Positions 9,860-49,500 of a stretch of DNA of 64,000 nt are shown here, piece after piece. The position numbers were made by a program, and so were the translations under genes. The notes beneath the pieces were generated by a model. The model was given only the letters and a program-made list of their open reading frames with translations, made no database searches and had not been told where the DNA came from. Origin of the DNA: Litoditis marina (lineage: Eukaryota; Nematoda; Chromadorea; Rhabditida; Rhabditidae); assembly GCA_964036275.1 (NCBI GenBank), contig OZ038433.1, positions 18,730,257 through 18,794,256 on the forward strand. The letters run 5' to 3'. Every line of letters starts with the position of its first letter. Within the stretch, counting starts at the first letter, position 1.

Positions 9860-12800
9860 TTAGAAAGTATTTGTAGAGAACGAGGTAGATTTTCCCTGTC
9901 TTCTCGCTTTCTTTTGATGTTGTTTCACGATACAACTGATGCCCACGGAGACCAGAATGATAGCCCCGATTGTGCCTGAAACATTCAACTGAACTTAAAT
10001 CAACCAATTATAGAAATGTATATTTACAATGTGCAATGACAATACATGGAAAGTTATATTAAGAACGTAAAGTCTAGTATAGGTTTGTCGATCGGGTTCG
10101 AAATCTCGAATTTCGAAAATTTCGTGCGACGGAGTAGTCGGACACGGAATTGAGTAGAAAAGTTTTCGACGAGACCTACCCAGGAATATAGGCGCCAGTT
10201 CGCCCCAACCCTTCTTGAGAATATTTCGGTCCTTCATTCGATGAATTGAATGGGGATAGCTCATACGTCTGGAAGTATGTAGTACAGGGAATTGGGAATG
10301 GCCAAATCTGATTTGTAGTTTGGTGTCATACTTCCTCCAAACTCTTATATTTCCAACTGAAACGCTGCGGAATCAAACTACAAAAACATCAGTTGATGTG
10401 CTGTGTCTGCCTGCTTCTCTTAGAGCCTATTCATAGGGTTTGCTCTTTTCAAATTGTTCAAGAACAGTAGTTCAATATGAGAAGCGGTATATGGTCCGCT
10501 CTACACTTTGCCTGTACATTGTAAGATGTCCCCGCCGATCCTGCTGTGTTTTTAGTTTGATCCCGTTCCTATTCGGTCGGAGTTTGTGAATTATGGCGTT
10601 TGCGACCAAACTACACCAAATTGTTGGTCACTCTGACCGTTCTCTGAAAAACCGTTGCAACTCAAAATACCGGACTCGCAAATTTTGCAATTTAAAATAC
10701 CGGGGTCAGCCCGATGTCGCCTGTACTGTTTGAAATTCATCAGGAGATGCAGGCTAACTCTACACCAGTATTTAAGCCTGCATCTTCTCCGGTATTTTCA
10801 GCTGTCAGCGTTTTTACAGTTTTACCTGTGGAAGTTGCGCTCGTTGAAGAACTTTCTGGTAGTGAACATGTATCCACACTGCAGGGGGCTTGGGATCCTG
10901 TGGAAGACTGAGCCGTTCGCATTCACCTCGTCCTGAGAAACGGAATTTCACGTTTTCCTCCAAGTTTCTGCCCAATGTTTTGAAGAATGACGATTATGTG
11001 CTCCAATCTCAACGCTTCAGTCCTTTAAACTGCAATACATTTTTCAATTGCAGTTTAAAGCACTGACGCGCCGAGATTGGAGCACATATAGTTCGTTTCA
11101 CCCATCGATAGCAGTCAGCCATGCTGGCCGAGCGCACCCTACATTGCAGGCGACTGATCTGGCAGCTTGCCAGTCTTTTCATTGCAAATAAAAATTCAAA
11201 AAGTGGTTATTTTGAGATTTTCCCCAATTTTTCGGTCTCAAAAGGTTACCTCCAAATCGGGGAGTAACTTAAAGAACTTTTTGTGCGATAAAATAAGCAT
11301 TGAAAAACGGCCTGAAAAGGTGATTGGATATAACTGTTTTTAGTTTCGCCCATCATGTTCGATGGCCGTCTGCTTGTGGGCGCCGCGCTACCTATCCCAG
11401 CTGGGTTCAATACCCGGCTGGTGCACAATTTTGATTAAGCGGATCGCTGTTGGAAACTTTCCAACACAATTGACTCCGCCCACTAAAATCCACCGTAACT
11501 GGCTGCTATCGATGGTTGAAACGCACTATAATCGTCCTACTTTGAGTTGAGTTGAGTGTGTGTACGAGTTATTAGTAAACAAAATATGAGTGTTTTGTGA
11601 CTGTGCGGTTCAAACATAGCAATTGAGATTCAAAAAAAAACTACGGATAGGTGATCGTTGAAAAACACGAAATTGACTGCATCTGTCAACTGATGTATTT
11701 GTAGTTTGATCCTTAACAAATTCGTCAAGTTTGCTGTGTATGAGAATCAGCACAGCCTAGATGTGCCACCTCCTGGAGTACGTATGCTAGAAAATCCCGG
11801 CACTTTCATCCCATCCTGCGTCTCTCGCTCTGCCTCACTATTTCACGTCTCTTACGTCCCGGCGGAATGTAAGAGCAGAGAAATAGCGTATGTTTGAGGA
11901 GACGCAGGATGGGATGACGGGGCCGGGATCTACTAGCCAACGTACTCTGAACAAACCGAACCAATTGAAAACTAACGGGAACATAGTAGAGATAAATTGA
12001 GATGGAATTGAGTTTCTCAACACCGTCCTCGTCTAATTTCACGTTAAATAGCTGTCCCTTGGACTCGTAGAGCAGCTGTTCGAAGCGGTGCTGGAGTCTG
12101 GAAACAGAGATACTTATAGTTGTTTGATCTCGAAATGAAAACAGAAACATTCGTTGTAGTTTGATCTCGGAACTCGCAGGAGTTCACGACGCTCGACGGG
12201 AAAGCGAGCGATCAAACTACAAACACAGCGGAATAGGTAAAGGCCCTTATAGTGGGTGCCAAATATATTGATGTTTGTTTTTCGCCGGAATCGAACCTGC
12301 GAGCAAAATATTTGTAGCAGAGCGCTAATCACTGCGCTACGAGAGTGCAAGGCGGACAAACTTTGGAATCAAGAATATCTGTCCGTACACAGCGGGAATT
12401 GAGATTTACAGTACCATCCCGCCTTTCCGTTGGCGACGACTATATGCGCCATGCGCCACTCATTCAAAAGACTGTTATTCTCTAAATATGCACTATAAAT
12501 GTCAAATCTGCGTGCCCTTAAAGTAGGACGAATATGTGGGGTAATCCCGATGTATCATTCCCTGAAACTGCAATTGGAAATGTACTGCGGTCCAAAGGAC
12601 CGAAGCATTAGGATTGATCCACATATTCGTCCTTCTTCAAAGCAACTTTTCTGCTCTCACGTCGCACCGGCAGACAAAACTCGCGACGTAGTGGAAACAA
12701 CAGATACCCAGGAAGTTCTCTAATAGTTTGGTAGTAAGTTTGGTTCATAGTTTGTAGTAGTGAGAGTAGAGAACAACCGTCATAGTGGAAAAGCATTAGG

Positions 12801-15800
12801 AAAACCTTAAAAGTTTGGTTATCATACTGTAGTGGGTAAGAAGCCGGTGAAATAGTGTAGGCGCTGTGTTTGTAGTTCAATTTTGCTTGTTTTCTAGTTG
12901 AAGTTCTTGAACAAAATGAGTGAAATTTTTAAAACAGAGCTTCAAATTGGACAGTCTAGTAATAATAGGACATAAATCGACTTGTTTCAGTTTGATCATT
13001 CATTTGGAAATTCAATGCAGCCCCCCTTTAACCCTATCAAAGTTTGGTTATCATACTGTAGTGGGTAATGAGCGGGTGAAATAGTGTAGGCGCGGTGTTT
13101 GTAGTTCAATCTTGCTGTTTTCTAGTTGAAGTTCGTGAATAAAAGAGAGTATCTAGTGCGAACTACATCTCCGCTATGGTCATCATCTATGATGCGTGCC
13201 GAATTTATGAACTATCCGCCTCATGTGAGACTCGAACCGAGCCCAAAAGTTATAGTCGTTGTCAACGGAAAGGCGGGAGGGTACTGTATATCTCATTTTC
13301 CGCTGTGTAGGCACACATGTCTTCGATTCCAATGCTTGCCCGTTAGGTGCACTAATAGCGCGGTGGTTAGCGGCCTGCTATGAATCTTTTGCTCGCAGGT
13401 TCGATTCCGGCGAGAGACATAAAACTATTAGCACGGTGGTTTTTCGAGTTTCGGGAATTTCGAGTTTTTCGAGTTCGAGTTTCTTGCGTTTCGAAAAAAA
13501 CCGAGTTTTCGAGTTTCGAGTTTGGTCGTCAAGTGTCAGGACTTTATCGAAACAAAAAAATGAGAATTTTTTGAGAAATTCAGATTTATTTACACATGAT
13601 TACGCGAGAATCGTGAAAAAGAAGCATTTTATTTCTGAAATAGCTGAGAAAGTGCTATAAAACGCTCAATTGTATCTCATTCCTGACTTGAAACGAAGCC
13701 AAACTCGAAACTCGAAAAACTCGAACTTTTCGAGTTTCAAAAATTTCGAGTTTTTCGAGTTTCGAGTTATTCGAGTTTTGGAAGTTTCGATTTTTTCGAG
13801 TTCGAGTTTCTTGCGGTTTTTAAAAAACCGAGTTTTTCGAGTTTCGAGTCGAACTCGAAACACGAAATTTCGAGTTATTTCGAGTTTTTTCGAAATTCGA
13901 GTTTGGCTTTAACAACCCTACTGACCACTTACCAACTGGGGCTACAGCCACAACGAATCGTATATATATGTGTTCCCACACAGCACAAAGTGAGATATAC
14001 AGTATGCCCCGCTTTTCTCTGAGCGAATATATACGACTTACACTACGCCTTTAAGAGTTTTGGAGTGTAGCGAGAGAGTGGGTACGGCCGGATGCGCAGA
14101 CGTCATCAGCAGTTTATCCAGGGGAATGAAAATCAGACCGGTAACACTGTAAAATAAACAATCATGTCAAATCTATAAGGTTCGATCAGCCCAAAGCAAA
14201 TCTAGGCGGTGTAATTGCCCCAACTCGCTCTGTTTTTAGTTGGATCACGTGGCTTTTCTGTCGAAATTCTGAAATTTGGCGTGTATAGAGTTCAAAATAC
14301 AATATGGGCATGGTCATTCCCAATATAGAACAGCTCGCGTGATCATTGTCAATGAAGTAAGCGCGACTGACTGTAATCCTCAAATAAACGGAAAAGTAAG
14401 ACAAATCGAGCTATACTCATATGTACAAAACTGAGTAACAAACGTGGATTGAGCATTAAAGGGACCGTTCCTCTTTAATTTAAATTCAATTTAAAGGAGT
14501 TTTGAGCTGATTAGTCGATATTGTTAACATTAAAAACCACACTCATTCATCTAGGAATAGAAAAAATAGAAGAAAGGAATAGGAAGGAATAAGAAGAAGG
14601 AACACTCATTAATCTAGGAATAGAAAGAGTAGAAGAAAGGAATAGGAAGAGGAATAGGGAGAAAACACACATGGAATGGTTGGTTCAAATTGTACACGCT
14701 TTCAAAACCTAATCATCGAGATAAAATCACAGAATGTGAAAAGGTTCAATTTCAGACTTACAATTTGGCTCCTCCACCGCCAAAACCTGGAAAAAGTGAA
14801 AGATCAATAAAATACGTTTCCTCATTTCAACCCCTTTCCTTTTCCTCTCTCCCTTTCCTAACTTTTCCTCTTCTCATTAACCTTTCTTAAGCTAACCCTT
14901 TTCCTCATTAATGTTTGTGAATGATTGTTGTTTTTAAATAACTGACAGTTAGAGAATAACTGATGATTCTGACGTGACTAGAGCAGTGACTGAGATTTCA
15001 TTTGGGTTCAGTCTAAGAATCCCGCTCTACAGAAAACTCGTCAAAGTTGGCCTCGAACTGATTTCATGTTGGAATCAATGAGAAGAATAACACTTCTTAA
15101 CCACCGGAATTATTCACCTACTTAATCGATATCGAACGGATAGTAGCCGCCAGTTTCAAGAATGCTCTCAATCGGCGTGGTTTCTACACTTTTTTCTCAT
15201 GTAACCGTGAGATTTGAAAAAAAAAGTAAATCTAACCGAATTGTCTGCGCACTCTGCTTGGCCCGGCAGCGGGATTCGGAGATGCAGCTGGAAAACACAA
15301 ATACCTCCCGGTTGAATAAGAATATGTTTCTTCCCTTCCCCAGTTCGTTTCAATCCCACTGAGACCCGTTGGCATCGTGCTAAGATTGTCGGCTATTTCT
15401 CAGACCAGATATAAGTTTTCTGAAGATTTCTCTCATTGACTTGCTCTTATGATACTTAACAACCTCTAACAGCGGTTTGCGGTTCATTGGAGAAAACTGC
15501 AGTGGTCAAAAATAGCTTGGAATATTTTTTGGCGCGCTGCCAAGTCTCAGTGGAATGACTGGTACTATAACATTGAGGTGAAGGTAAAGTGACCTGTGAG
15601 TTTTTTGAGTTGCACTCTATCACATTTTCCTCAAACAAAAGATTTGCTGTAACTGGATAAGCAGTTAGCGTATCATTATACTAGAAGTGAATTGAATAGT
15701 CACGTAAAGTTAGCATTCCAACGAAGCATCGTGCACTTTGTCATTGCACGTTTCTGAGTAATTGCTGTGTTTAACAAGTTTTACGTGACTGTGAAATTGA

Positions 15801-16391: not shown

Positions 16392-19300
16392 CGAAACAAT
16401 CAGCATACCATACTATTCACTTCTGATGGATCCGGGAGGTTGTGCACCACCCGTACGGCCATTCCCTCGAAAGGCGGCGAGATCAAAAACGGAACGTCTA
16501 TCACTGAAATGAGACACTTCAATCAGTATATAGTCTTTTCATTACAACTCAAACACCTTCAGTACCAAAAAAACCCTAAGTCTGTTTGAAATCTTTCGAC
16601 ATAAAAAAACTGACATGTACTACTACATGCCGAAGGTTTACAATAGCGGAACATGGGAACCACATATAGTCGTAGCCAACGGAAAGGCGGGAGGATACTG
16701 TGTATCTCACTTTCCGCTGTGTACGCACACATGTCTTTGATTCCAATGCACACCGGTCATGTTCTCTTATAGCGCGTTGGTTAACTGGCTGCTACGAAAA
16801 TTTTGCTCGCAGGTTCGATTCCGGCGAGAGAAATAAATTTATAAATTTGGCACCCACTATAGAGGATAACCCATTTACGATTGTAAAGTGTCAGTACCCC
16901 CACGCTCATTTGCAGTCAGTACTCAGACAATTGAACAGTCAGGTGAAACATGTTGAACACAGCAGAAATCAGAAACGTGTAATGTTAAAGTACACGTTGC
17001 CTTACTAGATTGCCCGCATTACGTGACTCTTCAATCGACTTCTATAGTGAGTGCCAAATTTATAAATTTCCGTCTCTCGCCAGAATCGAACCTGCGAGCA
17101 AAAGTTTCGTAGCAGGGCGCTAACCACTGCTCTATTAGAGCACATGATGGACTTGCTTTGGAATCGAATACTTGTGTGCGTACACAGCGGAAAGTGAGAT
17201 ATACAGTTCCCCCCCCCCCCCGCCTTTCCGTTGGCGACGACTATAGTTTAGACATCTGTCCAATGAATCCGAAACTCACCAGTTTCTCGGAAATATGGCA
17301 CAAGTTTGAAGTTGTCATCAATAAAAATACGAAGTTCGTAGATTCTGAAATCCATGAAGACGATGAGATTTTTGCAGAAGATAACAGGTAGAAATATTTG
17401 GATAAAAACAGAAACAAGAATAGTTATAGTTATTTTGTGGTAAAGTTCTTATTTTCAGAATATGTCGTGTTCAACCAATCACACTTTCTGCTACGACTCT
17501 AATCAGGAACCTTCATTTTCCATGCTGTATTGACCAAATTAACACTCGTCACTTGTATATAGTCTTTCTCACCGCTCATACATGGTAACTTGATGGATAG
17601 ATAGTAACCCGCTAACAAACTCAAGAGCAGTCCGGCAAATCAGACCATTCCCAGTCACTTGGCCAGCCACTTCTGTGGTCTTGATGAGAGAGTGTGAAGA
17701 TCAGAGAGACGCAGATGTCTGCGGTCTCATTGGCATACATGCTCTCGCTTTGTTAGCTGGCCAATCGCAAAAAATCGGCTCTAGTCGTTCGCAGCAACTC
17801 AGATCGATTAGCACCAATTTTATGCGATTGGTCAGCTGAAAAAGCGACATCATGCCGTTCCATAAGGGCGCAGAAATCTGCGTCTCTCTGATCTGCACAC
17901 TCTCTCGTCGAGGCCGCTACAAAAGTGGCGGGCCGGGCTCGAAATTGTCTGAGCGAAAGGCGACCGATATTTGACACACTGCCACCGACTCCATTTGAGT
18001 ACATTGAGAACTATACCAATAGGAATGTACCTGGTTTGGATGAAGTTGGTCGTGACCACATAAATACGGTAGTTGGAATTGTAGAACGAATCAATCACAT
18101 AACCTGGAAAATGTGATTTAAAATGACGTCAAGTGAAATCAAACCAATCCAGGAAATATATTCATTTGCAGTTTGTTACATAATGTTTCCCAACTATAGT
18201 CGTCTCCAACGGAAAGGCGGGAGGGTACTGTATATGTCACTTTCCGCTGTGTACCCACACATGTCTTCGATTCCAAAGCTTGGCAAGTGTGTGCTCTAAT
18301 AGCGCAGTGTTTAGCGCCCTGCTACGAATCTTTTGCTCGCAGGTTCGATTCCAGTGAGAACCAGAAATTTATAAATTTGGCACCCACTATATCAACTCTC
18401 TTGTCGGGACTGAACCTTTAACGGAAAGTTTATTATGATGCTCCAACCTGAACGATTCCTTTGAAGTGGAACAGTACAAAATCTTCGGAAATAACAGTTC
18501 TTCAACATTTTTGATGAAAGAGGCAGAAAGGAAAGTAGCAAATGAAAAACGGGCTGCTGGCTGCTCAAGAGAAACCGATATATATCTTTTTCAATTCAAA
18601 CTAACCATTCTGATTTGCATACGGTTCACGTGTTCTAGTCCGTTTTGGCGAGCGCAACGTTATATTTAGGTACACCTGAACTAGCTTTTAGTTCTACCCT
18701 CCCTCAAGTGTTGAATTTGAACGTACACGTTGAAGCACACCTCTTGCAATAGTCTCCGAGTAGGCGTACTCCAATCTATTCAAAGGCAACTTCAACCAAA
18801 TCAGATCCCTCTGTTGAATGACCGCTTTGCCACTGAAATATTGGAATGAAATTCAGAGAAAAATAGACGCAGTAAACGAGGAAATTATAATGTTTGTACG
18901 TTCAGGCAATGGTAAGTTTCCTGAGTACGTATGCTAGAAGATCCCGGCACCTTCATCCCATCCTGCGTCTCTAGCTCTTACGTACTATTTCTCGTCTGTT
19001 ACGTCCCGGCCGGATGTAAGAGCAGAGAAATAGCGTATCTTTGGGGAGACGCAGGATGAGATGAAGGTGCCAGGATCTTCTAGCATAGGTACTCTGGCGT
19101 TTCTACAACAGTCATCCCCATGCTGGATTCCACGCCCTTCTTCTTGAACAGATTCAACACAGGTTGAAGAGATTGAAACCGCTCTACGAATATTCAAGTA
19201 CTTCAATACGTGAATCTGTGAAAAGTTTATGAACTTTTGAAAAACCCTAACATGCCAGAAAGTAGGCTGGAAATTCCATGACACGCTGCCAAAACAGTAG

Positions 19301-21342
19301 TCGTTACGTAATAAATGAGTGATCAATTGAGTCAAATCCCAGTACCAACAAACGATTCTACCTACTAAATTAGGTGTTTATCGGAGTGTAATGTAAGCCG
19401 TCACCGTTCGTGTGGTGGTGAATATTAGGGTTGTTAGAAATATTTCGAGTCGAGTCGAACTCGAAACTCGAAAACTCCAAATTTTCCGAAACTCAGAAAT
19501 TCGTAAATTTGAACTCGATAACAACCCTAGTGAATATGGTGGTAATGTCCCAATCACCTCATCGCGTTCTGAACCCGCACTCTTCGACCCCATCTATCCA
19601 ACACAACTAGCATCTTTTCATCCATACCCTCCTGCAATATAAGATTCAAAATATTCATACAAACTTTTTGTCGTGGTCTCGGTGCAACTTAGTGGCAGAA
19701 TTTATTTCAGACGTAGCCTGATTGGTGGTTTATACAAATTTCTCATTCTGTGTCACCCAATCCCCCACTACAGATGAAAAACCAGTGAAATAGCACGCAG
19801 CACAAGAGACGCAGGATGTGAAGAAGATTCCAGGATACATCCGCGTTGAACATCAAACTGATAAAAACAAAACAGAAATAAAATGAACGTAAAACCCGTG
19901 ACAGAAACATGTTCTTTCTGCAAATAAATTCTATGCACATTGCATACTTCGTAGCGCGCCTACAGTAAGACCTTGAGAAACTACTTTCAGACCTAGCGTA
20001 TGTACTAGCGTTCAGGCTTCAGAGTAGGGCCTTCGCAGCACGTACCGTGTAGATCATCATGATAGTCTTATGGGCGCACCGCCCTTTCGGTCCGAACAAC
20101 GTCTTCTCGTGAATCAAGGTAATTTTGTCTCTTTTCAGGGTCTCGTCCAGAACATCATGCAACCATCCATAGTACACGAAACAGTTGGATGTGAGGCCGA
20201 AAACTGTAAAGATGGAATGCGTATAACGAGGAAAGAACCTGAACGCGATATATAGTGTGCTTCACGGAAATCGGAAGAGCATGGAGGTCAATGAGGGTGC
20301 AGACATCTGCGTCTCTGTGACCTGCACACTCTCTCGTCGAGGTAGGAATGTGGCTGGCCGATTGGCTGAAGTGTTTATGTCCCACGAAGACTTCGGCACT
20401 GTGCCAATGATTTTGATACCTCTGGCCAGTATTCCAGTCTTCCTCATGTTTTCCGGCTCAAACGCTTCCGGATCCAACACGCCCGTTAATCTTGTCATGC
20501 TCTCGTGCACGTGTGCCTGTGGCAAAAATGATTATTTTCGAAGCAATGAACCTAGAAATGATTGTAATAGCTGATAAATTTGTATTATAATGTGTGAAAT
20601 AAACAAAAAAAATCCTATAAAATGCGGGTATGCCCAATGTGACCTATGTGAGTCATGAATTGATGAAGAGCAAACAATACATGTACAGTGGTGTTATATC
20701 AGGGTTTCTCTCAGGAAGGCAGTCCTATACGGTAGAGGTATAATCGTCGCCAACGAAAAGGCGGGTGGGTACTAAACATCTGCATTTCCGCTGTGTACGC
20801 ACTCATTTCTTCGATTCCAAAGCTTTCCGTTCATGACACTAATAGCGCAGTGGTTAGCGCGCGGCTACGAATATTTTGCTCACAGTTCGATTCCGGCGAG
20901 AGGCAGACATTTATAAATTTGGCACTTACTACAGTCGTATCTTTTAGTTTCATTCCACAGACGAAAATAGAAAATGCCGTACTCACCGTGTGAAGTCGAT
21001 AGAGTGGACTGGCAAAACTGGAAGTTTCACACAGAAGAAAAAATGAACCCTGAATAGTGAACGGTTGTTAAATATTCATACTTGTTTCGAGAAAAATGTT
21101 ATTCTAAATAATGTTCCAAGCCATTTTAGAAACTTTCACAAAAGGATTCCGGAAAAAATCTGAAAAAAATTATACTCTCTAAAATATTTTGCTATTTTCT
21201 CTAAATTTTCAGGACACCACCTTAGTTCTATGATTGTTTTCCCTATTCTTCTCTTCTATGATACAATATGATTTTAAGGCTGAACGAGAGAGAATGATAA
21301 TCTCACCAATGGTAGTAGGAGCCATACGACCAGCTGAGCCAT
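9860..21342 (-). CDS. Unrecognised type I membrane protein, ~566 residues, proline-rich stalk
   Basis: I do not recognise the family. Phase-consistent exons are 21307-21342, 20987-21049, 20420-20516, 20046-20203, 19558-19631, 19252-19285 (tentative), 19093-19181, 18741-18832, 18031-18103, 17280-17344, 16409-16503, 15965-16251, 14042-14146, 11977-12097, 10826-10932, 10180-10268 and 9860-9975. The protein starts with a hydrophobic signal sequence (MAQLVVWLLLPL...). Residues ~293-380 are proline-rich with repeated PGPQPAAI units. There are N-glycosylation sequons (NVT, NGS). A transmembrane segment near 530-547 (IGAIILVSVGISCIV) is followed by a basic tail (KQHQKKARRQGK). Every junction except the tentative exon fits without adjustment, which supports a functional gene. 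Introns are swollen with MITEs. The topology is well supported; the function is unknown. Confidence 0.7.
10986..11092. repeat. Hairpin MITE (gattatgtgctccaatc family)
   Basis: Inverted arms (atgtgctccaatctc ... gagattggagcacat) surround a core with cagtcctttaaactgcaa and its complement. Relatives lie at 12523-12638 and 34100-34215. Confidence 0.65.
11087..11530. repeat. 444-bp non-autonomous DNA transposon
   Basis: The left end is tatagttcgtttcacccatc. The right end, read inward, is tatagtgcgtttcaaccatc. Both continue into gatagcag. A second copy at 24006-24318 matches the first ~230 bp well and loses the right end. Confidence 0.75.
11776..11947. repeat. 172-bp palindromic MITE (GAGTACGTATGCTAG family)
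   Basis: The inverted ends gagtacgtatgctagaaaat ... gtactc enclose gcgtctc and its complement, so the whole element can fold back. It is exactly the same length as the copy at 18923-19094. Confidence 0.75.
12248..12444 (-). repeat. tRNA-like MITE/SINE family, 197-bp copy
   Basis: The ends are TATAGT and ACTATA. The minus strand carries an A-box-like tagcgcagtg-type motif and a B-box-like ggttcgattcc motif. It lies in an intron of the 9860-21342 gene. Confidence 0.8.
12523..12638. repeat. Hairpin MITE (aggacgaatatgtgg ... catattcgtcct)
   Basis: The inverted arms enclose a core with ctgcaattg and ctttggaccg-type motifs. It is related to the elements at 10986 and 34100. Confidence 0.6.
13194..13246. 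repeat. Fragment of a second tRNA-like repeat
   Basis: The sequence tgcgtgccgaatttatgaa...gactcgaacc resembles the 36228-36285 repeat end, with a reversed B-box-like gactcgaacc. It lies directly beside the tRNA-like copy starting at 13251. Confidence 0.45.
13251..13420 (+). repeat. tRNA-like MITE/SINE family, 3'-truncated copy
   Basis: It begins tatagtcgttgtcaacgg and keeps the A box (tagcgcggtggttagcgg) and B box (ggttcgattcc). The 3' end is replaced by a ttcgag-rich repeat. Confidence 0.75.
13435..13918. repeat. TTTCGAG-unit low-complexity repeat
   Basis: Tandem tttcgagtt units fill 13440-13550, and both orientations fill 13690-13915. The right edge taacaacccta matches the terminus of the hAT-like element at 19426-19529, so this may be a larger, end-damaged member. 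Confidence 0.6.
15684..15804. repeat. CACGTG-type palindromic MITE copy
   Basis: It runs from gaatagtcacgtaaagtt to gttttacgtgactgtgaaat with cgtgca...tgcacg in the centre. Related copies are at about 16895-17040, 23127-23252, 29131-29236 and 34490-34605. Confidence 0.6.
16290..16392. repeat. GA-rich microsatellite
   Basis: An interrupted (GA)n tract lies in the intron between exons 15965-16251 and 16409-16503 of the membrane-protein gene. Confidence 0.9.
16665..16861 (+). repeat. tRNA-like MITE/SINE family, 197-bp copy
   Basis: Full length with TATAGT/ACTATA ends. It forms an inverted pair with the copy at 17043-17245, with a CACGTG-type MITE between them. Confidence 0.85.
17043..17245 (-). 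repeat. tRNA-like MITE/SINE family, 203-bp copy
   Basis: Full length with a poly-C run expanded in the left part of the element. It ends 35 bases from the splice donor next to exon 17280-17344. Confidence 0.85.
17650..17965. repeat. Foldback element (gagagagtgtgcagatcagag family)
   Basis: Two inverted copies of ggccagccactt...gagagtgtg..agatcagagagacgcaga flank a short centre with gcgattgg. Single-arm relatives are at about 20280-20385, 37930-38055, 38085-38240, 40190-40325 and 55910-55960. Confidence 0.65.
18195..18391 (+). repeat. tRNA-like MITE/SINE family, 197-bp copy
   Basis: The complete copy has TATAGT/ACTATA ends, A box tagcgcagtgtttagcg and B box ggttcgattcc. It lies in an intron of the membrane-protein gene. 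Confidence 0.85.
18923..19094. repeat. 172-bp palindromic MITE at a splice donor
   Basis: It has the same family, ends and length as 11776-11947. Its right terminus (ggtactc) overlaps the inferred end of exon 19093-19181: the GT donor at 19091-19092 and the last two exon bases lie inside the MITE end. Confidence 0.7.
19426..19529. repeat. hAT-like mini-element with 8-bp target duplication
   Basis: The terminal inverted repeat is tagggttgtta ... taacaaccta-type. It is flanked by perfect direct repeats gtgaatat at 19418-19425 and 19530-19537. The body contains tcgag units. Confidence 0.8.
20739..20933 (+). repeat. tRNA-like MITE/SINE family copy
   Basis: Ends are slightly diverged (TATAAT/ACTACA). 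The A box tagcgcagtggttagcg is intact and one base is lost before the B box (cagttcgattcc). Confidence 0.75.
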
Positions 21343-21973
21343 TGTGAAGAGAGCGAATGAATTGGAAATGGAGATATTCCGGAGTTTTCACGTTTTCGCG
21401 TCGAGAATGCCGTAGGAAAACGCGTTCTAACAGGGATGGAGTATTCTCAAACCAACCAGTCTGTATAAAGTTTCATTGCAATCTAAGCCCGGCGAGGCAA
21501 CGACCACCCGCAACGAAAAAAATGTCAATCGTGTTTCTCAAGATTCGGAATAACCGAGTTTTTGAGTATCGACTTTTCGACGATTTCATTTCTGAAGACA
21601 ATTGGAGTTGGACTCAAAAACTTTTGAGAGTTTTCAGACCAAACCTGGTTTCGAGGAAAAGTTTTTTTTTCGAAAGAAATCACGTTTTCTTTTTAAATTT
21701 TCCGAGTAGAATCCAGTTTCAAGATTTCGCGGATCCAAAATTTTCCTCAATATTCTGTTCACTCGAGATGGACAAAAACTATCGTGCGCAGCGCGGAGCG
21801 CTGCGCAGATTAGTTTTTTGCCCTTTTCTCCGTTATTTGTGAACCATTTTCCGAGAAACTTGCCGTGAGCAATTAAAGGGCATACATCTATAAGATGTGT
21901 GTTTGAGTTAAAAATGACTCAGTTGACGTGAGTTGAAAGGGTAAACGTCTCGCAAAAATGACTTCCGTAATGG

Positions 21974-21989
21974 GGCGGCGGCGGCGGCA

Positions 21990-22027
<38 letters not shown>
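21974..22027. repeat. (CGG)n trinucleotide repeat
   Basis: About 17 CGG units with one CAG interruption. CG-rich arrays like this are rare in AT-rich worm DNA. Confidence 0.9.
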
Positions 22028-22309
22028 TACAAAAAATCTCTTCTCTGGGCACAGCTTCGCTCTCAATAAAAAATCTCTGAACACGGTTTACACTGTTGTG
22101 GAGCGAAAAAAAGTTGGGGTATACGTATTTTTCAGTCATAGTTGCAAATTTCATTTTAAGGATGATAGGGCCTTAAATGGTCTCAGGAAAATGTCTAAAT
22201 CGACCGGTTTTGAGAAAATGAAAATGAAAAAAGGAGAATCACGTGAAATTTATTCCTAAACTTCTCAGCTCAGAACTCGGTTGCGCGTACAGCCTAGTTT
22301 TCATTTGGA

Positions 22310-22395
22310 TTCACATGTCTGAGTGGCACAGTGGATATACTTTCTGTTCTAGTGAAATTGGATTGAGGTTCGACTCCCGCCTCGAGCGAAACATT
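22310..22395 (+). other. Degenerate tRNA-like sequence
   Basis: An A-box-like tggcacagtgg and a B-box-like ggttcgactcc lie about 45 bases apart, as in a tRNA. I cannot form a good T stem or acceptor stem, so this is probably a tRNA pseudogene or another tRNA-derived repeat. Confidence 0.4.
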
Positions 22396-22536
22396 TGCAA
22401 TAATTTGCTAGTATAATTTCGAGTTATCCTAATGCTCAATGCTGTGTCAAACTTGTTCAAAAATGACGTGCATTATTTTCACATGGTTATATATTATTTT
22501 GATAAGAGTTTCTCCGTAACTATAGAAAAAGAGGTC

Positions 22537-22868
22537 AATTAGTATAAAAAACGAGTGTAAAGAGGTTAAGATTAGTTTTAGAGATCACATAAACAAAAAT
22601 ATAAAACAGGTCCAATAAACGGATATTAAGAGAGAAAGGCTAATATCGCTTGAAAATTACACAAAGTATCACAGATATTACTCAGTAACGATGATGAAAC
22701 ATCTGAATACAGTACACGAAAATCCAGCTAGAATTTTGCCACATTTCAAACGAGCGAGCTTGGCCTTTCTCTCTTATTATCCGTTTCTTGGACCGGTTTT
22801 ATATTTTTGTTTATGTGATCTCTAAAACTTATCTTTACTTTCTTGACACTCGTTTTTTATACTAATAA
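22537..22868. repeat. Foldback element, ~330 bp with ~100-bp inverted arms
   Basis: The left arm (tagtataaaaaacgagtg...agagatcacataaacaaaa...) and the right arm (ttttgtttatgtgatctct...cactcgttttttatacta) are near-exact complements. The centre is about 100 bp. Confidence 0.75.
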
Positions 22869-23524: not shown

Positions 23525-26500
23525 TTATGTGTTGAAATGTGATCGAACAGTCTCCAGGCCGAGAAGTTGCTTCGAAATCGTCTTCAGCTCGAACTTCTTC
23601 ACCTAAATAGTTTACGATGAAAGTTCAGCCACAAAAGAAATTTTTGAGCTTACTGCAGCCACTCAGATTTTCCACTTCAAGAATTTGGTCAATTCAACTA
23701 TTTATTCAAATCAAAGTGTTGGATGTTAGAATTCGTGGAACTACTTCAAATTCCAGTTCTATCTATGTTAGTCTTACTACTACGAATCCCCAACTACAAT
23801 ATCTGAAATTATGAATCTGTATTAGAAAACCGCCCGTTGAACAGTTGACTAAGTACTGTAGACGGTTATATTGGTGAATTAATATATAGAAGATGTGGAG
23901 ACATACCTTCCCAGTGGCGGTCAGAGGAAAGTCTCGCCCTTCTTTTATCAGAACATACTTGGGCACCTTGTAGTGCGCAATCTGAATGAAAAAGTTGTAG
24001 TCTGATATAGTTCGTTTCACCCATCGATAGCAGTCAGCCATGCTGGTCGAGCGCGCCCTACATTGCAGGCGACTGATCTGGCAGCTTGCCAGACTTTTCA
24101 TTACCCATAAAGTTTCAAAAAGTGGCTATTTTAAGATTTTTGCACAAATTTTGTGTTCAAAGTGTTATCACATAATGGGGGAATAATTTAAAAAAACTTT
24201 TTATTCGCTAAAATTGGCTTTGAAAACGGTCAGAAAAGATGGTTGGATATCACAGTTTTTCGTTCCGGCAATCATATTCGGATGGCCAGCTGCTTGAGTG
24301 CGCCGCGCCACCCATCAGATGTAGAAATATGCGTACGGCAAACATGTGTTACCGTGATGAGAATACAATGAATTGCGCGAATGGAGTGCATATGATTTTC
24401 AGCCACGGTATTCAAGAGCAGTTTGAACCACCCCGAACCGACCACGCTTACTTTTTCTGTTGGGGATATTTGGTAGTTTGTAGCCAATGCTGCTTAAATG
24501 CTTGTATTCTCTTTGGCGGTGTACCAATCCTTCATATCTTCTGTGAAGTTCATTTGAGTTTCTCATGAGACACCTCATGAGCTATTCGTGAGCTCCCAAG
24601 GCTGTAGTATAGTAATCAGTGGAATCTCATCAGAAACTCGTGAGATTTGGCTCATGAGGTATCTCATGAGTTTTCGGAGGGATCGGGCGCCGCCTGATGT
24701 GCTCACCTTTTCTTTGCAGGCGTCGATGATCATCTGGGGAGTGAGTTTCTCCTTGTAGTCATCCTTCAATCGAATCCACGCACAGACGGCTTCTCCTAAT
24801 CGATCGTCTGGTACACCAACGACCTGGAAATAATCAATAAGTCCCCTTGATCTTGATTATTCCGTACAACGTTGATATAAATTAACTCAGATTATAAACA
24901 CCCACCACCCTAGGTTACTCAATAAATGTGACTATTCAGTACCTTTTGATAGTCCTTTGATTTTTATTAACTTGAATTGAAGACACTAACCACCAGTTGT
25001 TCAATAAATATAATATAATAGAGTATAATAGATTTTGCTTGCGATATAGTTCTGAAAGAGGGGAATGGTACATTGCTCTATTGTACAATGCATGTCTTTT
25101 ATGTCCAAATATTTGCTGGCAAACCAAGTATATAGTCTTTGCCGACGGAAAGATGAGAGGGTACTGTATATCTCACTTTCCGCTGTGTACGCACACATGT
25201 TTTCGATTCCAATGTTCCCCGGCTATGTGAATAGCTCAATGATTAGCGCCCTGCTACAAATCTTTTGTTCGCAGGTTCGATTCCGGCGAGAGATAGACAC
25301 GTATAAATTTGGCACCCACCATAGCTGCCGTTTTACAAGACCTATATATAGTCTTTTTCATTCCTACTGAGACTCCTACAGTAGGATTTCAAAACTTCCA
25401 AACCGTTTTCCTCACTTTCTTATGATCTGAAAAGCTGAGGATTTTTACAATTTTTAGCTTCATGACAGACGTTGGAATGTTTGTAGGGTTACTGTAGGAG
25501 TCTCAGTAGGAATGGTGTGAACTATACCGTTTAAAACCAGAAATGTGAAGGAACCTGAGCATCGGCCACGTATCCGAGTGTGTGTAGATAGGTTTCTATC
25601 TCGGTAGGGTAGATGTTCTCTCCGCCACGACAAATCACGTCCTTCGTACGACCGACAACATTCACCGAACCATTCTCGTTCATCGAAGCAGTATCTCTGT
25701 TTTGGTCAATTTGTGGCTTCAACCGGGTTGCTTTAATGAAACTTGCAATGCTTTAGTATACCAACCGAATTGTTTTGCATTGGAACATTTCATCCTACAG
25801 ATATAAGTTTGATCTATGCAACTATGTAACATGAGAAGAGTGACAAATAGTAAAATGTTTAGATACAACATGCTATGAGAACACTATGCCCGCAGTGTGT
25901 TGGTATTATTACTACTACAATAACTTTCATTATTACTATTAATGTTATTATCATAAACTTTCGTTAAATTCGGAAAAATTCAATAGCCAACCCGGTGTGA
26001 TACCAGCGATCGGCAGTCAGATACCTGTGGGAGATATCCTCGCCTGACCAATATCCCCACATCGTATTGTAACTGAAATATATGTCTGTAGCTCACGAGG
26101 TGTCCATGAGATTCTCATGAGAAACTCTTATGAACTTCTTGTGATGTTGGAAGGACACTGTGTTGAAATTGAGAATCTCACATCAAAACATTGAGTTAAC
26201 ATCATGTAGTCAGATGAGTCAAGTAAGCAGTTACACGGATTTTGTCGCGGGTACCAAATGAATGAATGATCTTTTATTTGTATTATCGATTGAGTTAGAA
26301 ACAAAATAAAGTTTCTCTCCATGTTTGACATACACTGAACGCGGTTTGTAGTAGTGAAAGAAGGTCTGTTGCGGAAATTTTACCTTCATGAAAGCAAAAC
26401 AAGTTTCAATTGTTGTGACCAGTTGCCGCAGCATGAAGGAAAAAGAGTGTCCTACAGAAATGATAAGTTACTGCTCACCCTCTGGCAAGAAGTTCGCCTG

Positions 26501-32769: not shown

Positions 32770-32952
32770 TCAATTAAAAAACTGGAATTGAACCTGTGAA
32801 CAAAAGATTCGTAGCTGGGCGCTAACAACCTATACGTTTTGTTATGGATAGGGACCGATACGTTTTGTTATGGATAGGGAAGACATGTGAACACAGCTAA
32901 AAATGAGATACACAGTACCTGCCCTCCTTTTCGTTTGCAACGACTATTTATC
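32770..32952 (-). repeat. tRNA-like MITE/SINE family, decayed copy
   Basis: It keeps a diverged B-box region (ggaattgaacctgtgaac, reversed) and the gagatacacagtacc...caacgactat end. A 25-base internal duplication (gggaccgatacgttttg...) is present. Confidence 0.55.
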
Positions 32953-34230: not shown

Positions 34231-34403
34231 TCGGGAGAGTGAGTGCCAAATTTATAAGTTTCGTTCTCTTCCCAGAATCGAACCTGCGAGCAAAATATTT
34301 GTAGCAGGCCGCTAACCACTGCGCTATTAGAGCACATGTGTGCGCGCACAGCGGAAAGTGAGATATACAGTACCCTCCCCCTTTTCCGTTGGCAACGACT
34401 ATA
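34231..34403 (-). repeat. tRNA-like MITE/SINE family, internally deleted copy
   Basis: The A and B boxes are intact on the minus strand. About 25 bases are missing between the A box and the gtgtgcgcgcacagcgg segment. Confidence 0.75.
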
Positions 34404-35136: not shown

Positions 35137-36227
35137 ACAGGTTTTATGGAAAGAACGTTCGGTCACGTACTGTAGCAAACGTCAACTGCCACTCATGACA
35201 GCCTATAGTGTCTTGCACAACATTAACATTCTTATTAATCGCCTGGATATTTTGCTGGCACGTTGCCGAGGTCTCAGAGGAATGAATGGAACTATATATT
35301 ATTGATTTTTTATTACGCATCAAACGCATTGGGGATTATTTTACTTTCACCCCCCCCCCCCCACTTTTATCGTTTTAGCCTAAATAAGTCCTGTGTTACA
35401 ATTTTCCCACGCATTGGAATCAAACTAAAAACACAGCCGAATCTGACCTTCTTTTACCAACTTTTACCGATTTTCCAACCACTTTATTCCGTCTTAGCAG
35501 GTAGCTAATTGTACAGACTATTCTCTCTCATAGTCAGTTAATAACGAACCGTATAGGGTCAATTGCTGTCACTTTCGGAATGATTTACACCCCGCGCGGG
35601 TTATGCCTATTTACAATCGAAACAGTGGTGATTGTTATGGTTACTTTCTATCTCTCGCCCTCTCTCTCTTCTCCTATCGCTCTCTCCTATTTCTCTGTCA
35701 TTCTCTATCTGTCTCTATTATGTTCTTTCTCTCACTCATATATTGTTTTACTCTCTTTACCGCATCCTATGAGGAATGACCAATTCTTAGTTGTACTATG
35801 ACAAATCTCGGGGGACTTAGCCGTGGAAAATCTGGTACAAAGCCTTGCGCTAACGAACTCCGGACTAAATACCCCCCTAAGTGCCAGATTCTAAAAACGA
35901 AACTTCTCCATCTTAGAACAAAAGAAGATGAAATATATGCATTTGGATCTAATTTTCTCTCCAATTTCCATTTTTCACTCTAAATTCAATTTTATCCACT
36001 CAAAACCGTACTTTTGCCCCACTGAAGACTCAAAAACTGGCGCGTGGCATTGATTCTTCGAGCCACGCTTGAGCCTATAAGCCACGCCCCTTTATGTCCC
36101 CCTCTAACTACTCCAGGTTCTGTCTGAGTAGTTTGAACGCAACGCCCGCCGAAAATTACGAGTTATTATCGAAAATCAATGGGTTCAAACTACAAACACA
36201 GCGTGGTAGGGCACCATACACCGTATA

Positions 36228-36565
36228 CAGTGCGTGCCAAAAATATAAAATATCCGCCTCATGAGCGATTCGAACCAGGCGGCGGAGCAATCCCTCAAAA
36301 ATCTCATGAGATACCTCATGAGCTATCTGCGTGAGCTTCTCATGAGATTCTATTGATTTCTATGCTACAACATTGAGAGTTCACGAGTAGCTCATGGAGG
36401 TATCTCATGAGAAACTCATATGAACTTCTCATGAGGCTGGACGATTTGCTACGCCGCCAGGCCAGAAACTTTGGAAGACGCGAACGGTAACCATTATATC
36501 AACGGGCTTCTAACAATTTTTACACAGCACAAAGCGAGACATACAGTATACCCCGCCTTTCCATC
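36228..36565. repeat. Second tRNA-like repeat interrupted by a CTCATGAG MITE
   Basis: A reversed B-box-like gattcgaacc at ~36271-36280 and the downstream cacagcacaaagcgagacat...ccccgcctttcc look like two halves of one repeat. They are split by a MITE at about 36283-36472 bounded by ggcggcg and cgccgcc. A related end lies at 13980-14025. Confidence 0.5.
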
Positions 36566-36596
36566 GCTATTATGGGCCTAATTTGAAATGAGCGAC

Positions 36597-40530: not shown

Positions 40531-43500
40531 ATGGCCAGCACATCTAGCCCCTTCGACCAACCCTACAAGACGGTTCACGAACTGGTAAGTTCACTATACT
40601 TTTGATTGTCTTTGCACTTAATTATGATCGGGCTAGCTTTCTGTTCTCTTCTAAGTTCTCTATACCTCTCTTTTTTCTTTCTCTTCTTCTCCTTATTTCT
40701 CTCCTATCTCTCACGTGCTTTTCGATCCATTTATCTACGTAGGGGGTCATAAATAGTGTTGAAACGGGCGAATCTTTCCAGTTCTGTTCAAGATTGCAAC
40801 AAAAAGGGAAAGGAACATACACATTGGTTGATCAGAGTACGTATGCATAAAACATCCCTGGCCAGGTGGGGATGTTTCATGCATACGCCGCCAGAGTACG
40901 TATCCTATAGTGGGTGCCAAATTTATAAATTTCTGTCTCTCGCCGGAATCGAACCTGCGAGCAAAAGATTCGTATCTGTGTGCGAACCACTGCGCTATTA
41001 GAGAACGTAACCAACGAGCCTTGGAATCGAATACATGCGTGCGTACACAGCTGAAAGTGAGATATACGGTACCCTCCCGCCTTTCTTTTTCAGTTGACGC
41101 TGCTTCATGGATCCAATCGACCAGTTGACATCGTTTCCAGTAGTGATGACGTCATCAATTTGTCCAATCAGCTGATTTCAGTCTACGAAACGAAACTCGA
41201 TGGTAACGCATTTTATGGTTATTGATTTATTGTATTCACTAAATTATGCTTTTTATAGTTTTCAGGATTCAGTTGTGTTACAACAATTCTCGATAAAACG
41301 TTCGATTGTGTAAGTGAAAAAAAGTTCACAGTTTCCAACAGTTACACGTAAAACAGAACTAGGACAAATGAGATTTTTTCACCCAAGTGTAACAACGGAA
41401 CAATGAATTCTTTTGCTCACTAAAGTATGTTTCATCAATCTCAGCTGATTTGACTGATCTACGCTGCACGAAAATGAGCGTGTTACCGTATCAAGTACAG
41501 TAATATATACGTTTACCGTATTCAATCTTGCAGAGCTGTCCACAAAAGACCTCTCGATGTCGGAGTTCGAGAGTGAATGGAGCAGTCTCACGTGGCCGCT
41601 TCTCTCCATTGTGAACAGAATGATCATGAGGACCTCCTCCAGCAACGAACTCCGAGTTCAACTCCGACTCAACGCCATCATTGTTTCGCTCGTCAATAAG
41701 GTACTGGTTTGGTTTCGGTCATTGTCACTGAGACTTGGCAGCGTGCCAATGAATATTCCAGGCTATTTTTCACCACCCTGGAGTACTTTTAAAATCTGAA
41801 AAGTTGACTGAAACGCAGTTTAGCAGTTAAGCAAAAGTCCGACCTGTTTCCTGTCTGTGATGCTTGATTTTACCGTCACATGGCAATGTGTTCATAGTTT
41901 TTCCAAGTACAAGCTTCGAATCTTTATCTACCTTTTCTCCAAACTCAATGGGATTGGCTAACTGAAACAAACACAGATGAAAATTTGCGTAATATGGACA
42001 ACCCCGCGAGAATTTGAAAAAAATAGTATGGTTGATTAGTAATATAAGAAACATTACTATTCTATATACAGAAATTTTTGCAGACTCGTCAATCGGCGCC
42101 TCCCCTTGGAATGGCAGAAAACAGCTACGTATGGATCAACTTCTGGAGGGTTAGTGTCAACATAGTCGTCGTCAAACGAACGGCGGTAGAGTACTGTAAA
42201 CCTCGATTTGTGATGTGCAACAACAACCGAGATTTGCTTCACCAGTTGATATAGTGGTCAGCGCCATTTTCTACTACATTTTTATGAGTATCGCGAGATG
42301 GAATTTAAAATGAAGCAAAGCATAGAAAAAATCTTGACTTGACGTGAACTAAAAGTGCATTTTGCTACCACTTTTTTTATCTCTCTCCACCGTGTCTGGC
42401 TTGAAAGGTAGATAACAGTTATTAATGAAAAAACACCTGAAAAAAACACAAAACGACGTGACTACTTAAAGGAATAAGCAGTATTGAAAGAATTCACAAT
42501 ATTACTTGGTTTGTTTACATCGGTTTAAAACTAATTCGTCTATATGGTTTAACGAAATGGGTTTACAAGTAAAATACTTGGAATGACTTGATCTTTACAA
42601 AACGTGAATATCGTCCATACTGTCGAAACTTGTATTGGTGAGTTTGCTCTAAGTTTCACAAAATGAGCGCAAAAAGCTACTCTTACACGACTGAATGAAA
42701 TGAGTTTATTTTTAAAATCCAAACTGTAAAATTTGTCCTATTTTCAGTACTATGGCAATGCCTTGAGGGTGCTGCACGAGTTGTATTCTCAAATCGACCG
42801 ACCCAGCGAGACCCTCGAAAAAGCACTCAACTCATTCGCACAAAACGAGGTTTGTGAGAAACTTCTGTGTTTTCTTCCTTTTCCCAACTTTCTTCCAGGA
42901 ATATGGTGCATTTACCATTTTCAGTTACATTATATCGTAGTAAATATTTAAGCTGATGTACAATACGCTTTATGTACCGTCCACACAGGGTTCGTTTTTC
43001 GACAATTTTTGAAAGCAAGTCCTTATATGCTCTATACCGTATATATGTATATTTGTAGTTTGATTCCTTTACTTTTTGGTCCAAATTTCTAAATCATATC
43101 ATATCGAGATCAAAATACAAGAAACACTCGGTCAATAAAAGTGTATCTTTACAAACAGAAAATAATTGCCGCCAAAGCAAACGATCTTCCCGATTTTCGA
43201 CGATTTCGTTTTATTTTCCTTATCTGAGTTCTTTTTCCTATTATTGACAGCTGTCAGTTTCTATCTCTAAACTGCAATAATATGGCACTTTTTTGACCTC
43301 ACTCGATGATTTCTCCGAGATTATGGAAAACGGCTGGACGCAATGCTTTTTTCTGAAAGTTTCGTTCAAAAGGCTTAGAGAAAGTTTGATGAGACAATGT
43401 TTTGTAGAACTTTTGTACGGTAAAACCGTTTAGTTGACGTTGGAACGAAGTTTACTTCCCAAGGATAGTACACCAATTCCGAATCTCAAAAGTACTTTAG

Positions 43501-46500: not shown

Positions 46501-49500
46501 CCGTACATTCGGTTCATTACGTTTGCTTTTTTGTATAACAATTTCCGTGAACTCTGGGTTGGAAGCGGACAAATAGCGGTGAAGAACCGAAACAACCCAC
46601 TGAACAGCAGGATTAGAAAAAGAAAAACTGGCTTCAGTTTTTTACTCTGAAGTTAAAACCCGAGTTGTTTAGCAAGGTTCGCCCCACCAAATTGGTCACT
46701 AGTTGATATCAAGTTGTGAAATCAAAGATTGGTGCACAATTGTGCACCAAGTTCTCGGTAAAAAGTCTGAACCTTGATTTACAACTTGGGTTCTCGGCGA
46801 ACCTTGGTAAACAACTCGGTTTTTAACTTCAGAGTAGGAAAAGTTAATGTACTCGAACAAAGTTGCGCTTATAGGATACGGTATTGATGGACACTCGTTC
46901 CGGTCAGATGGGAAAGAGACCGCTGTTCTATTTCTACGTGAGAGGAGTGATATTCTCACCGTCTGGCAGTCTCTCGTATACACACACTCTCTCACTTCCG
47001 TTTACTATAGCCACGAGGAGGAATCAGGTGACGAAACGCTTCAAATTCGATGTGTTCAATTGTTGATAAACACAGTGAACTATTTTTATTGAACACTTGA
47101 AAAATTTTTCAAAAGAGCTGGTGTGATATTCATTTTTGAATGAGGCTGCGCACACGTTTTTCGAGCGTCACTACTAAACTCAAATATCACGTGTAAAAGA
47201 TAAGTACAACTTAGTGAAGGCGCAAATCCCTTGCAAACTAGCAAACAAAACTGTGAGAACTTGATTTATTTAGTATAGTTATTTAGTTCATTTCTCTCAA
47301 TTCTCCGCTAGAAGACGGTCAGTAAGTCGTTTCGTCCTGTTTTCATTTTCTCAAAGGGGTTCAACTGATGATGACCCAACCCTCTGATAAAACCCAAAAC
47401 CGTCTTGAATCAGGGTCGAAACGGTTTTGAGTACATCTCTTACTGAGCACATTAACCTAATCATATAGTTATTCAGTTTTCCGTCTCTCCGTCAGTTAAC
47501 TTACCTTTTTTCAGGACTGTCAAGTGCAGCGAATGATGAGCTCGTACACTGCCACCTGTTTTTGGTTGTACGGCCTGCGGGTACTCGATGGGCTCATTCT
47601 GAACTGGTGCGAGGAAGGTCAGATTGTGTTCCTAATAATAATAATAAGCTTTATCAGTATATAGTTGGACAATCATATTTAGGTACGAAAACTGAACCGG
47701 TTGAACTGATATGTGAGAAAAGGAGAAAAACTTGGGAACATGATATTGCATGATAAATGATGTTTAAACAGACATTAGACTAGTTACCATGATGGATTGA
47801 TGTTGTAACGGAAACCATGGCGATCAAAGTAGACATCAGATACAATTGGGGTTCTTATGAACATTTGATTGGGAAATACTAGGAACGACAAAGTTTTCAA
47901 CTTCTCGGGACGGGACATTTCACGTTATTATATACACGTCTCATCAGCACACTACGTTTCTTCCAGCTAAAATCAGCATTTGAATAATTGAAAGATAATG
48001 TTCTTTCAACTTTTCAACTCGCAGGCATACCACCCGTTTCGTGCACGTGTACCGATTCAAGTTTGTAGTTTGATCCGTGCAGCCATAACAGATTGCGAGT
48101 TACAACTGAAAAACTTAAAGAATCCGTCCCGCTCTAATTTTGACTTGTGAGTTAACAATCTGACCTTTTGGCAAATGAAAAACCATTATCAAAAATATAT
48201 ACTTCTATATCTCTATCTCGCTTCGTTTTCTCAGAAAAGCGGGTTACGTAATGACACCGATGGGGGAGTTGCGTACGGGGTATGCTCAAAATAGCCTATA
48301 AAAGTACAAAAACATTTTTAAAACGTTCTATCATATACGACAACACAATTAAAAACAAAAACTGAAGATAACTCGAAACGTAAATAAATCAAGTCAAGTT
48401 GCCTCACAGTGAAAATGTTCATGTGCTCTTTTTTATTGCTCGATTTTATGCAAATTTCGCGAACTTTTTATCAGAAAGTTTTTTCATGGTCTGTGGGAAG
48501 ACATTGAGAGACTTTTTGAGCTTTTTGAATTTTTCGTGAAACTCAGATTATAGCGGAACGGTTTCTTTAACGTTTTAGAGGAGATTCTGCCTTTCTCCAT
48601 GCGTAATCTTCGAAATTTGATTTTTGATTTCAGGCATCGCGTGGACTCGTTTCGTGCACTTGTACCGTTCGTATTTTTCCGTGAACGCCGAAGTTTCGCG
48701 GACACTTTCGGACGACGATTTCAGACTTCTGGACGAGAAATTGGAGTGCGACGACTGTAGGGAGGTCACGTTCAAAGGTAGGCAGAACGCGTGATATAGT
48801 CGTCGCCCACGGAAAGGCGGGAGGGTACTGTGTATCTCAGTTTCCGCTGTGTACGCACACATGTCTTCGTTTCCAAAGCTTGCTCATGATGTGCTCTAAT
48901 AGCGCAGTGATTAGCGCCCTACTACATCTTTTGCTCGCAGGTTCGATTCCGGTGAGAGACAGAAATTTATGAATTTGGCACCCACTATATTTAGAAACGG
49001 TCGACGAAAGATAATGGGTAAACCCCACTCTCATAAATATAGTTTGTTCCAATCACTTATAACCCACTACAGTAATCTGCTAACACTTCTAGGTCAAAGT
49101 TTGGTATATTAGCGTATTTAGAACTGCTCAAACTGTCGATAGTGTCTTCAGCATGTTTACTACTACTAACTCTGAAAGTTTGAGACCAAAGTAATAACTT
49201 TTTCATTAGAAAACACCCCCTTAAATTATTGACGGATTACTGTAGGAGTATATCGATTGGTGAAACAGACTATAACTGGGTAACTACGGTTCTTACATGA
49301 AAAACCGTCCATATTGGCCTTTTGTAGTTTTGCAAGTTGATCCGCTGAAGATTCTAGTTTCACTTGGTGAAATTCGAGAGGTAGATTTATCCTTTTTCAA
49401 AAAAGTATTATATTGCAAAAAATGGTTTTATTCTATATTCCTAATGTGTTCAGACGGTGAGCGTATGGTGACGTTTAAGAATGTTCTATGTCCCCACCTC

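What the first reader, a model, noticed from the sequence alone, without database searches (positions are those of the whole stretch)
12248..48989. A ~197-bp transposon-like repeat that carries a tRNA-like Pol III promoter
About a dozen copies (12248, 13251, 16665, 17043, 18195, 20739, 25131, 27547, 32770, 34231, 40906, 48795) share two features rarely combined. The ends are imperfect inverted repeats (TATAGTCGTCGCCAA and TATAGTGGGTGCCAA, 12 of 15 identical), as in a TA-inserting DNA-transposon MITE. Inside, an A box (TAGCGCAGTGGTTAGCG) and B box (GGTTCGATTCC) sit at tRNA spacing with remnants of paired stems. Several copies are exactly 195-197 bp, in both orientations and in introns of different genes. 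It could be a SINE that was captured by a MITE, or a MITE able to be transcribed by Pol III.
Basis: partly seen in the sequence, partly recalled or inferred. Interest (0 to 1): 0.75.

Follow-up and report, generated by a model that had tools for sequence, protein, structure and literature searches.

The report
DNA transposon carrying a tRNA-like core
A short cut-and-paste DNA transposon, present in thousands of copies in a nematode genome, carries inside it the control boxes of a tRNA gene, and two other kinds of transposon in the same genome do too, which suggests that jumping DNA may be spreading binding sites for the tRNA transcription machinery.

Summary
Of 12 copies in the window, 8 are full length (193-203 bp); the 3' end occurs exactly 2202 times in the genome (control 0). 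The genome is a nematode (765 SL1 leaders). An empty site shows a TA target duplication, so this is a DNA-mobilised MITE, not a SINE. Core and ends belong together: 7 of 7 distinct elements found by the A box have both ends; 19 of 20 loci found by the 3' end carry the core.

A sister family (F2) shares both ends and a diverged core. Two other transposon types, a 947-bp inverted-repeat element (F5, two head-to-head cores) and a Helitron-like element (F4), carry A/B-box cores at the same 32-nt spacing.

Full Pol III transcription of the reported element is unlikely: a TTTT stop lies between its boxes and no cloverleaf scores. F5 is the better Pol III candidate.

Best reading: a TA-inserting MITE that disperses TFIIIC-type sites, working like C. 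elegans CeRep3 repeats. TFIIIC binding is inferred. In an unbiased sample the A box is not specially conserved, so an inert passenger core is a live rival. No transposase was found; the mariner search did not complete.

The parts
12248..12444 (-). F1 copy, full length 197 bp, TA at both ends; A box 12327-12339, B box 12287-12297
13251..13423 (+). F1 copy, 3' end missing; lies next to the 3' end of an F2-type element (13189-13251, minus)
16665..16861 (+). F1 copy, full length 197 bp
17043..17245 (-). F1 copy, full length 203 bp (G-run expanded)
18195..18391 (+). F1 copy, full length 197 bp
20739..20933 (+). F1 copy, full length 195 bp, 3' end CA instead of TA
25131..25323 (+). F1 copy, full length 193 bp
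27547..27742 (+). F1 copy, full length 196 bp, exact 5' TIR and A box
32784..32947 (-). F1 relative, degenerate (72% to the consensus over positions 2-158)
34235..34403 (-). F1 copy with internal deletion (169 bp)
40906..41085 (-). F1 copy, consensus positions 18-197
48795..48989 (+). F1 copy, full length 195 bp
13955..14026 (-). relative matching the 5' block only (profile 9-79, E 2.5e-8)
36226..36575 (-). F2-type element, old, with extra sequence inside: 5' block 36521-36566, A-box region, B box and 3' end 36226-36278
42161..42270 (+). F2-type element, 5' part with TIR, 5' block and A-box region
46645..46751 (+). paralogous empty site: single TA where locus L033 holds an F1 copy
21782..22865 (+). 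F4: Helitron-like non-autonomous element (A^TC...CTAA^T), A box 22324-22334, B box 22367-22377

Best explanation
The repeat (F1) is a non-autonomous, TA-inserting DNA transposon (MITE, most likely of the Tc1/mariner type) moved by a transposase supplied in trans that recognises its imperfect TIRs and probably a conserved 5' subterminal block (positions 16-66). Inside it lies a tRNA-derived core that has lost the cloverleaf but keeps recognisable A and B boxes at tRNA spacing. The core was already present in the common ancestor of F1 and its sister family F2 and has been carried along by DNA transposition. Its likeliest effect is to offer TFIIIC a binding site without productive Pol III transcription (a TTTT stop lies between the boxes), like the extra-TFIIIC sites on CeRep3 repeats of C. 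elegans. Shown here: DNA-type ends, TA duplication, linkage of ends and core, sister family, T4 between the boxes, absence of a cloverleaf match. Inferred: Tc1/mariner type, transposase in trans, role of the 5' block, TFIIIC binding.
For: Sharp ends in 43 full copies. Empty site: the joined flanks of the L033 copy match window 46645-46751 (94%) and two further paralogues with a single TA; a second, weaker case is L030 against L019 at 75% (2 of 43 copies gave a junction-spanning match). Linkage: the 8 loci found by the exact A box are 7 distinct elements (L003 and L004 are one) and 7 of 7 have both ends, one of them split by an insertion; of 20 loci fetched from the first 23 listed 3'-end hits (3 skipped because already held), 20 match the F1 profile, 18 from end to end, 19 with the core. 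Sister family F2: 23 copies of 197-199 bp consensus size with the same ends, 5' block, boxes and T4 before the B box. F1/F2 A boxes differ at 4 of 11 positions, all of them degenerate in the consensus TRGYNNANNGG, and B boxes at 2 of 11; random substitutions of that number leave both boxes legal in 0.04% of 200,000 draws. T4 in the A-B gap: 7 of 9 F1 and 13 of 14 F2 copies that have both boxes. Other transposon types with the same kind of core: F5 and F4. In C. elegans 225 of 504 extra-TFIIIC sites overlap repeats and 214 of those are CeRep3, suspected tRNA pseudogenes (PMC6950938, abstract and passages).
Against: Within F1 the A box is not specially conserved: in 29 copies not chosen by the A box its mean match is 0.862 (rank 122 of 187 windows), while the B box is 0.944 (rank 25), and 24% of random window pairs are as conserved as the two boxes together. 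The higher A-box value in the 43-copy set (0.958) is inflated, since 8 loci were chosen by that box. Only 9 of 29 copies have both boxes legal at tRNA spacing. No transposase with these ends was found: PF01498 gave nothing (its controls rang nowhere either), PF13358 only 12 weak matches below cut-off, and PF01359 did not complete. TFIIIC binding has no direct evidence here.
Confidence: 0.5

Rival explanations
1. Inert passenger: an ancestral MITE captured a tRNA pseudogene; the core has no role and is kept only because copies descend from a few masters.
For: A box no better conserved than the rest in the unbiased set; only 9 of 29 copies keep both boxes; no cloverleaf match.
Against: A-box differences between F1 and F2 fall only on degenerate positions; B box among the better conserved internal windows (rank 25 of 187); cores recur in two unrelated transposon types.
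Confidence: 0.33
2. Pol III-transcribed MITE: the A/B boxes drive a small RNA from each F1 copy.
For: Boxes at tRNA spacing (gap 31-33 nt).
Against: T4 between the boxes in 7 of 9 F1 copies with both boxes, and T4 within 30 nt after the B box in 0 of those 9; RNA fold no better than shuffles.
Confidence: 0.1
3. A tRNA-derived SINE (retrotransposed) whose terminal inverted repeats are fortuitous.
For: tRNA-like head with A and B boxes.
Against: TA duplication at an empty site, precise ends CACTATA without poly-A or simple-repeat tail in the full copies, the same ends in sister family F2, TIR identity 12 of 15.
Confidence: 0.03

Closest known systems
MER6/MER6A (mammalian Tc1/mariner MITE with SINE sequence; PMC6887750, abstract and passages seen)
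   Same: A non-coding MITE with TIRs and TA duplication that incorporates SINE sequence and spread as DNA.
   Different: MER6 (865 bp) took the body and tail of the SINE and excludes the tRNA-related head; F1 (197 bp) carries the tRNA-like box region itself and no SINE body or tail.
CeRep3 repeats and extra-TFIIIC sites of C. elegans (PMC6950938, abstract and passages seen)
   Same: Nematode interspersed repeat with A and B boxes suspected to be tRNA pseudogenes; extra-TFIIIC sites form clusters, and exact F1 A-box hits on contig C1 are mildly clustered (22 gaps under 10 kb against 9.8 expected, maximum 21 in 2000 simulations; two of the 22 are pairs 12 and 32 bp apart).
Tc1/mariner MITEs in general
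   Same: TA target, short TIRs, high copy number, no coding capacity; the F1 3' end resembles the Tc1 terminus (recalled, from no call).
   Different: An internal Pol III-type promoter core is not a feature of that group as I know it (recalled).

Membership tests
TA-inserting MITE (Tc1/mariner type) | terminal inverted repeats | tested here: met
   12 of 15 identical in F1; F2 ends less symmetric
TA-inserting MITE (Tc1/mariner type) | TA target-site duplication | tested here: met
   empty site of L033
TA-inserting MITE (Tc1/mariner type) | high copy number, uniform short size | tested here: met
   2202 exact 3' ends; 37 of the 43 full copies are 195-197 bp
TA-inserting MITE (Tc1/mariner type) | related autonomous element with a DDE/D transposase sharing the TIRs | tested here: inconclusive
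   PF01498 none with no control ringing; PF13358 only sub-threshold; PF01359 unanswered in 20 tries
tRNA-derived SINE | internal A and B boxes at tRNA spacing | tested here: met
   consensus gap 31 nt; 9 of 29 individual copies keep both
tRNA-derived SINE | LINE-related, poly-A or simple-repeat 3' tail | tested here: not met
   full copies end in the TIR
tRNA-derived SINE | variable-length target duplications | tested here: not met
   TA at the one clear empty site
tRNA gene | match to the tRNA covariance model | tested here: not met
   none on F1 at E<=1 in 4 loci, none at E<=10 in 7 loci holding F1, F2, F4 or F5 copies; a real tRNA was found in L014
extra-TFIIIC site | TFIIIC bound without Pol III | not testable with these tools
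   needs ChIP data
CeRep3 | sequence homology to CeRep3 | not tested

The most novel reading that the evidence does not exclude
In this nematode, unrelated DNA transposons (the F1/F2 MITEs, the 947-bp TIR element F5 with two divergent complete Pol III-type units, and the Helitron-like F4) have each kept a tRNA-like A/B-box module because TFIIIC binding (or, for F5, Pol III transcription) helps them spread or escape silencing; cut-and-paste transposons are thereby the main distributors of extra-TFIIIC sites and shape chromatin domains.
Probability: 0.25. Interest if true: 0.8.

Novelty: new variant of a known kind. Interest (0 to 1): 0.55.

Why it matters
If the boxes bind TFIIIC, cut-and-paste transposons and not only SINEs can scatter Pol III-type promoter modules and potential chromatin-boundary sites through a genome. 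It would suggest how extra-TFIIIC sites such as those on CeRep3 arise, and F5, with near-identical copies, makes it testable whether a Pol III unit helps a DNA transposon to spread.

Tried and rejected
SINE reading: rejected on the TA empty site and precise 3' end. Cloverleaf: ARAGORN (bacterial code) found no tRNA in the window; relaxed ARAGORN on the consensus gave only implausible folds; Rfam at gathering scores gave nothing in the window. The first conservation profile (43 copies) made both boxes look special; repeated on 29 copies not chosen by the A box, this held for the B box only. A possible third sister (L013:620-830) has no other copy at this sensitivity. Transposase: PF01498, PF13358, PF01359 unanswered. 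The 12 PF13358 matches lie in open frames of 416-1877 aa; I take them for integrases of LTR elements from frame length alone and did not examine them. Papers: (listings) showed no TIR element with a tRNA-like core; the library holds only open-licence papers, and Repbase and Dfam were not searched, so absence from print is not established.
Full report
What is there. The window lies in a 261.8-Mb genome (G000:C4:18730257-18794256) that is a nematode: the SL1 leader (sequence recalled) occurs exactly 765 times, control 0, and TTTYCAG is enriched in the window (34 against 8 for the reversed word, and 30 against 9 on the other strand). The reported repeat, here F1, is real at all 12 places; 8 are full length. 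From 43 full copies (10 partial and 3 duplicate rows dropped; 2 of the 43, L015 and L027, share flanks) the consensus is 197 bp with mean identity 90.3% (range 78.4-96.4); 30 of the loci were chosen by similarity to one copy, so this is not an age estimate.

Copy number. The 3'-end 16-mer TTTGGCACBCACTATA occurs exactly 2202 times (control 0); 7 of the 12 window copies carry it exactly, which suggests roughly 3,800 copies of F1 plus F2 (my estimate). A systematic sample of 80 kb (25 loci at round coordinates: L039-L048, L061-L075) holds three F1 copies (L065, L068, L071) and one F2 piece (L061), so the window, with 12 copies in 37 kb, is unusually dense.

How it moves. Flanks show no similarity beyond the terminal TATAG...CTATA. 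Joining the flanks of the 43 copies across one TA and comparing them with the held sequence gave junction-spanning matches for 2 of 43: L033, whose empty paralogues at window 46645-46751 (94%), window 46834-46796 and L033:1860-1822 have a single TA, and L030 against L019 (75%). That is TA-target DNA transposition, not retrotransposition.

Unity of core and ends. Starting from the exact A box, the 8 loci fetched are 7 distinct elements (L003 and L004 overlap and hold one element with a 12-bp internal duplication), all with both ends; L002 is split by about 450 bp. Starting from the 3' end, 20 of the first 23 listed hits were fetched (3 were already held): 20 of 20 match the F1 profile, 18 from end to end, L127 from position 51, L128 only from 147.

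Sister family F2. Window pieces at 36226-36575 and 42161-42270 led to F2. 23 copies (20 of the 40 listed, plus L076-L078) align end to end: the same ends, the same 5' block (TACTGTATATCTCACTTT), A box TGGTATAGTGG, B box GGTTCGAGTCT, and a TTTT before the B box as in F1. The F1 and F2 consensuses are 69% identical: 5' block 42 of 51, spacer 23 of 39, A box 7 of 11, gap 20 of 32, B box 9 of 11, last 27 nt 24 of 27. Because functional tRNA genes avoid TTTT inside (general knowledge), the shared TTTT argues for common descent of the core rather than two captures. All four A-box differences lie on degenerate positions; with 4 + 2 random substitutions both boxes stay legal in 0.04% of draws. Two independent captures of real tRNAs would also put differences there, so this test rests on the descent argument.

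Result against constraint. In 29 copies not chosen by the A box (18 TIR-selected, 9 from the window, 2 from the 80-kb sample) mean match to consensus is 5' TIR 0.933, 5' block 0.921, spacer 0.772, A box 0.862 (rank 122 of 187), T4 0.94, B box 0.944 (rank 25), 3' end 0.934; 24% of random window pairs equal the two boxes. Only 9 of 29 have both boxes legal. Individual copies decay and show no A-box constraint.

Transcription. The T4 between the boxes and the lack of T4 after the B box (0 of 9), the absence of any tRNA-model match and an unremarkable fold speak against a stable Pol III product. TFIIIC binding without transcription is known for C. elegans repeats with both boxes (PMC6950938, passages).

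Other carriers. F5 (L001:1591-2537 and 8 fetched copies): 947 bp in full copies, 34-nt TIRs TATAAGACGAC... present at both ends in 9 of 9, A as outer flanking base on the right in 9 of 9 and on the left in 8 of 9; listed genome matches to its centre are 96-100% identical over 40 rows plus one short piece. It holds two head-to-head cores; in 9 of 9 copies each has A and B boxes with a 32-nt gap, no T4 inside and a T4 within 30 nt after the B box. The F1 profile finds both cores (E 5.7e-7 and 3.9e-6), so they share ancestry with F1 beyond the boxes. F4 (window 21782-22865): in 9 aligned copies (8 of the 40 listed, plus the window) the 5' end is A^TC in 9 of 9 and the 3' end CTAR^T in 6 of the 7 that reach it, as in Helitrons; 7 of 9 have both boxes, with no T4 in the gap or within 30 nt after. 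F4 was not matched by the F1 profile. F4 and F5 classes are assigned from ends only.

Conclusion. F1 is a TA-inserting MITE with an inherited tRNA-like core. The most likely role of the core is as a TFIIIC site; that it is inert is nearly as likely. Membership in Tc1/mariner is inferred from TA and TIRs, without a transposase.

Noticed in passing
L001:1591-2537, L112-L119: F5: 947-bp TIR element with near-identical copies on several contigs and two divergent, complete-looking Pol III-type units; probably recently active.
   Followed up: partly
window 21782-22865: F4: Helitron-like non-autonomous element with an internal A/B-box core; first-look candidates in the genome 276, 40 scored.
   Followed up: partly
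window 33012-33248, 33322-33558, 44674-44910, 49038-49274: A 237-bp repeat family, 81-90% identical between copies, whose ends also begin TATAGT (TATAGTTTGTTCCAA).
   Followed up: no
window 37926-38241, 17640-17953, 20276-20368, 40178-40321; 11776-11947, 18920-19096: Further short repeat families, several matching in both orientations (hairpin-like).
   Followed up: no
G000:C4:16287343-16292445: Three F2 copies spaced exactly 2452 bp apart, suggesting a tandem array of a larger unit that contains F2.
   Followed up: no
G000:C1:64508-90920: SL1 leader sequences in tandem at about 1367-bp spacing, beside many dispersed single SL1 copies.
   Followed up: no
L013:2395-2442; L010:2775-2836: Further weak matches to the F1 profile with tRNA-like core sequence but no F1 ends.
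   Followed up: no
window 29700-30520: Long CT-rich simple repeat that gives long Ser/Leu open frames.
   Followed up: no
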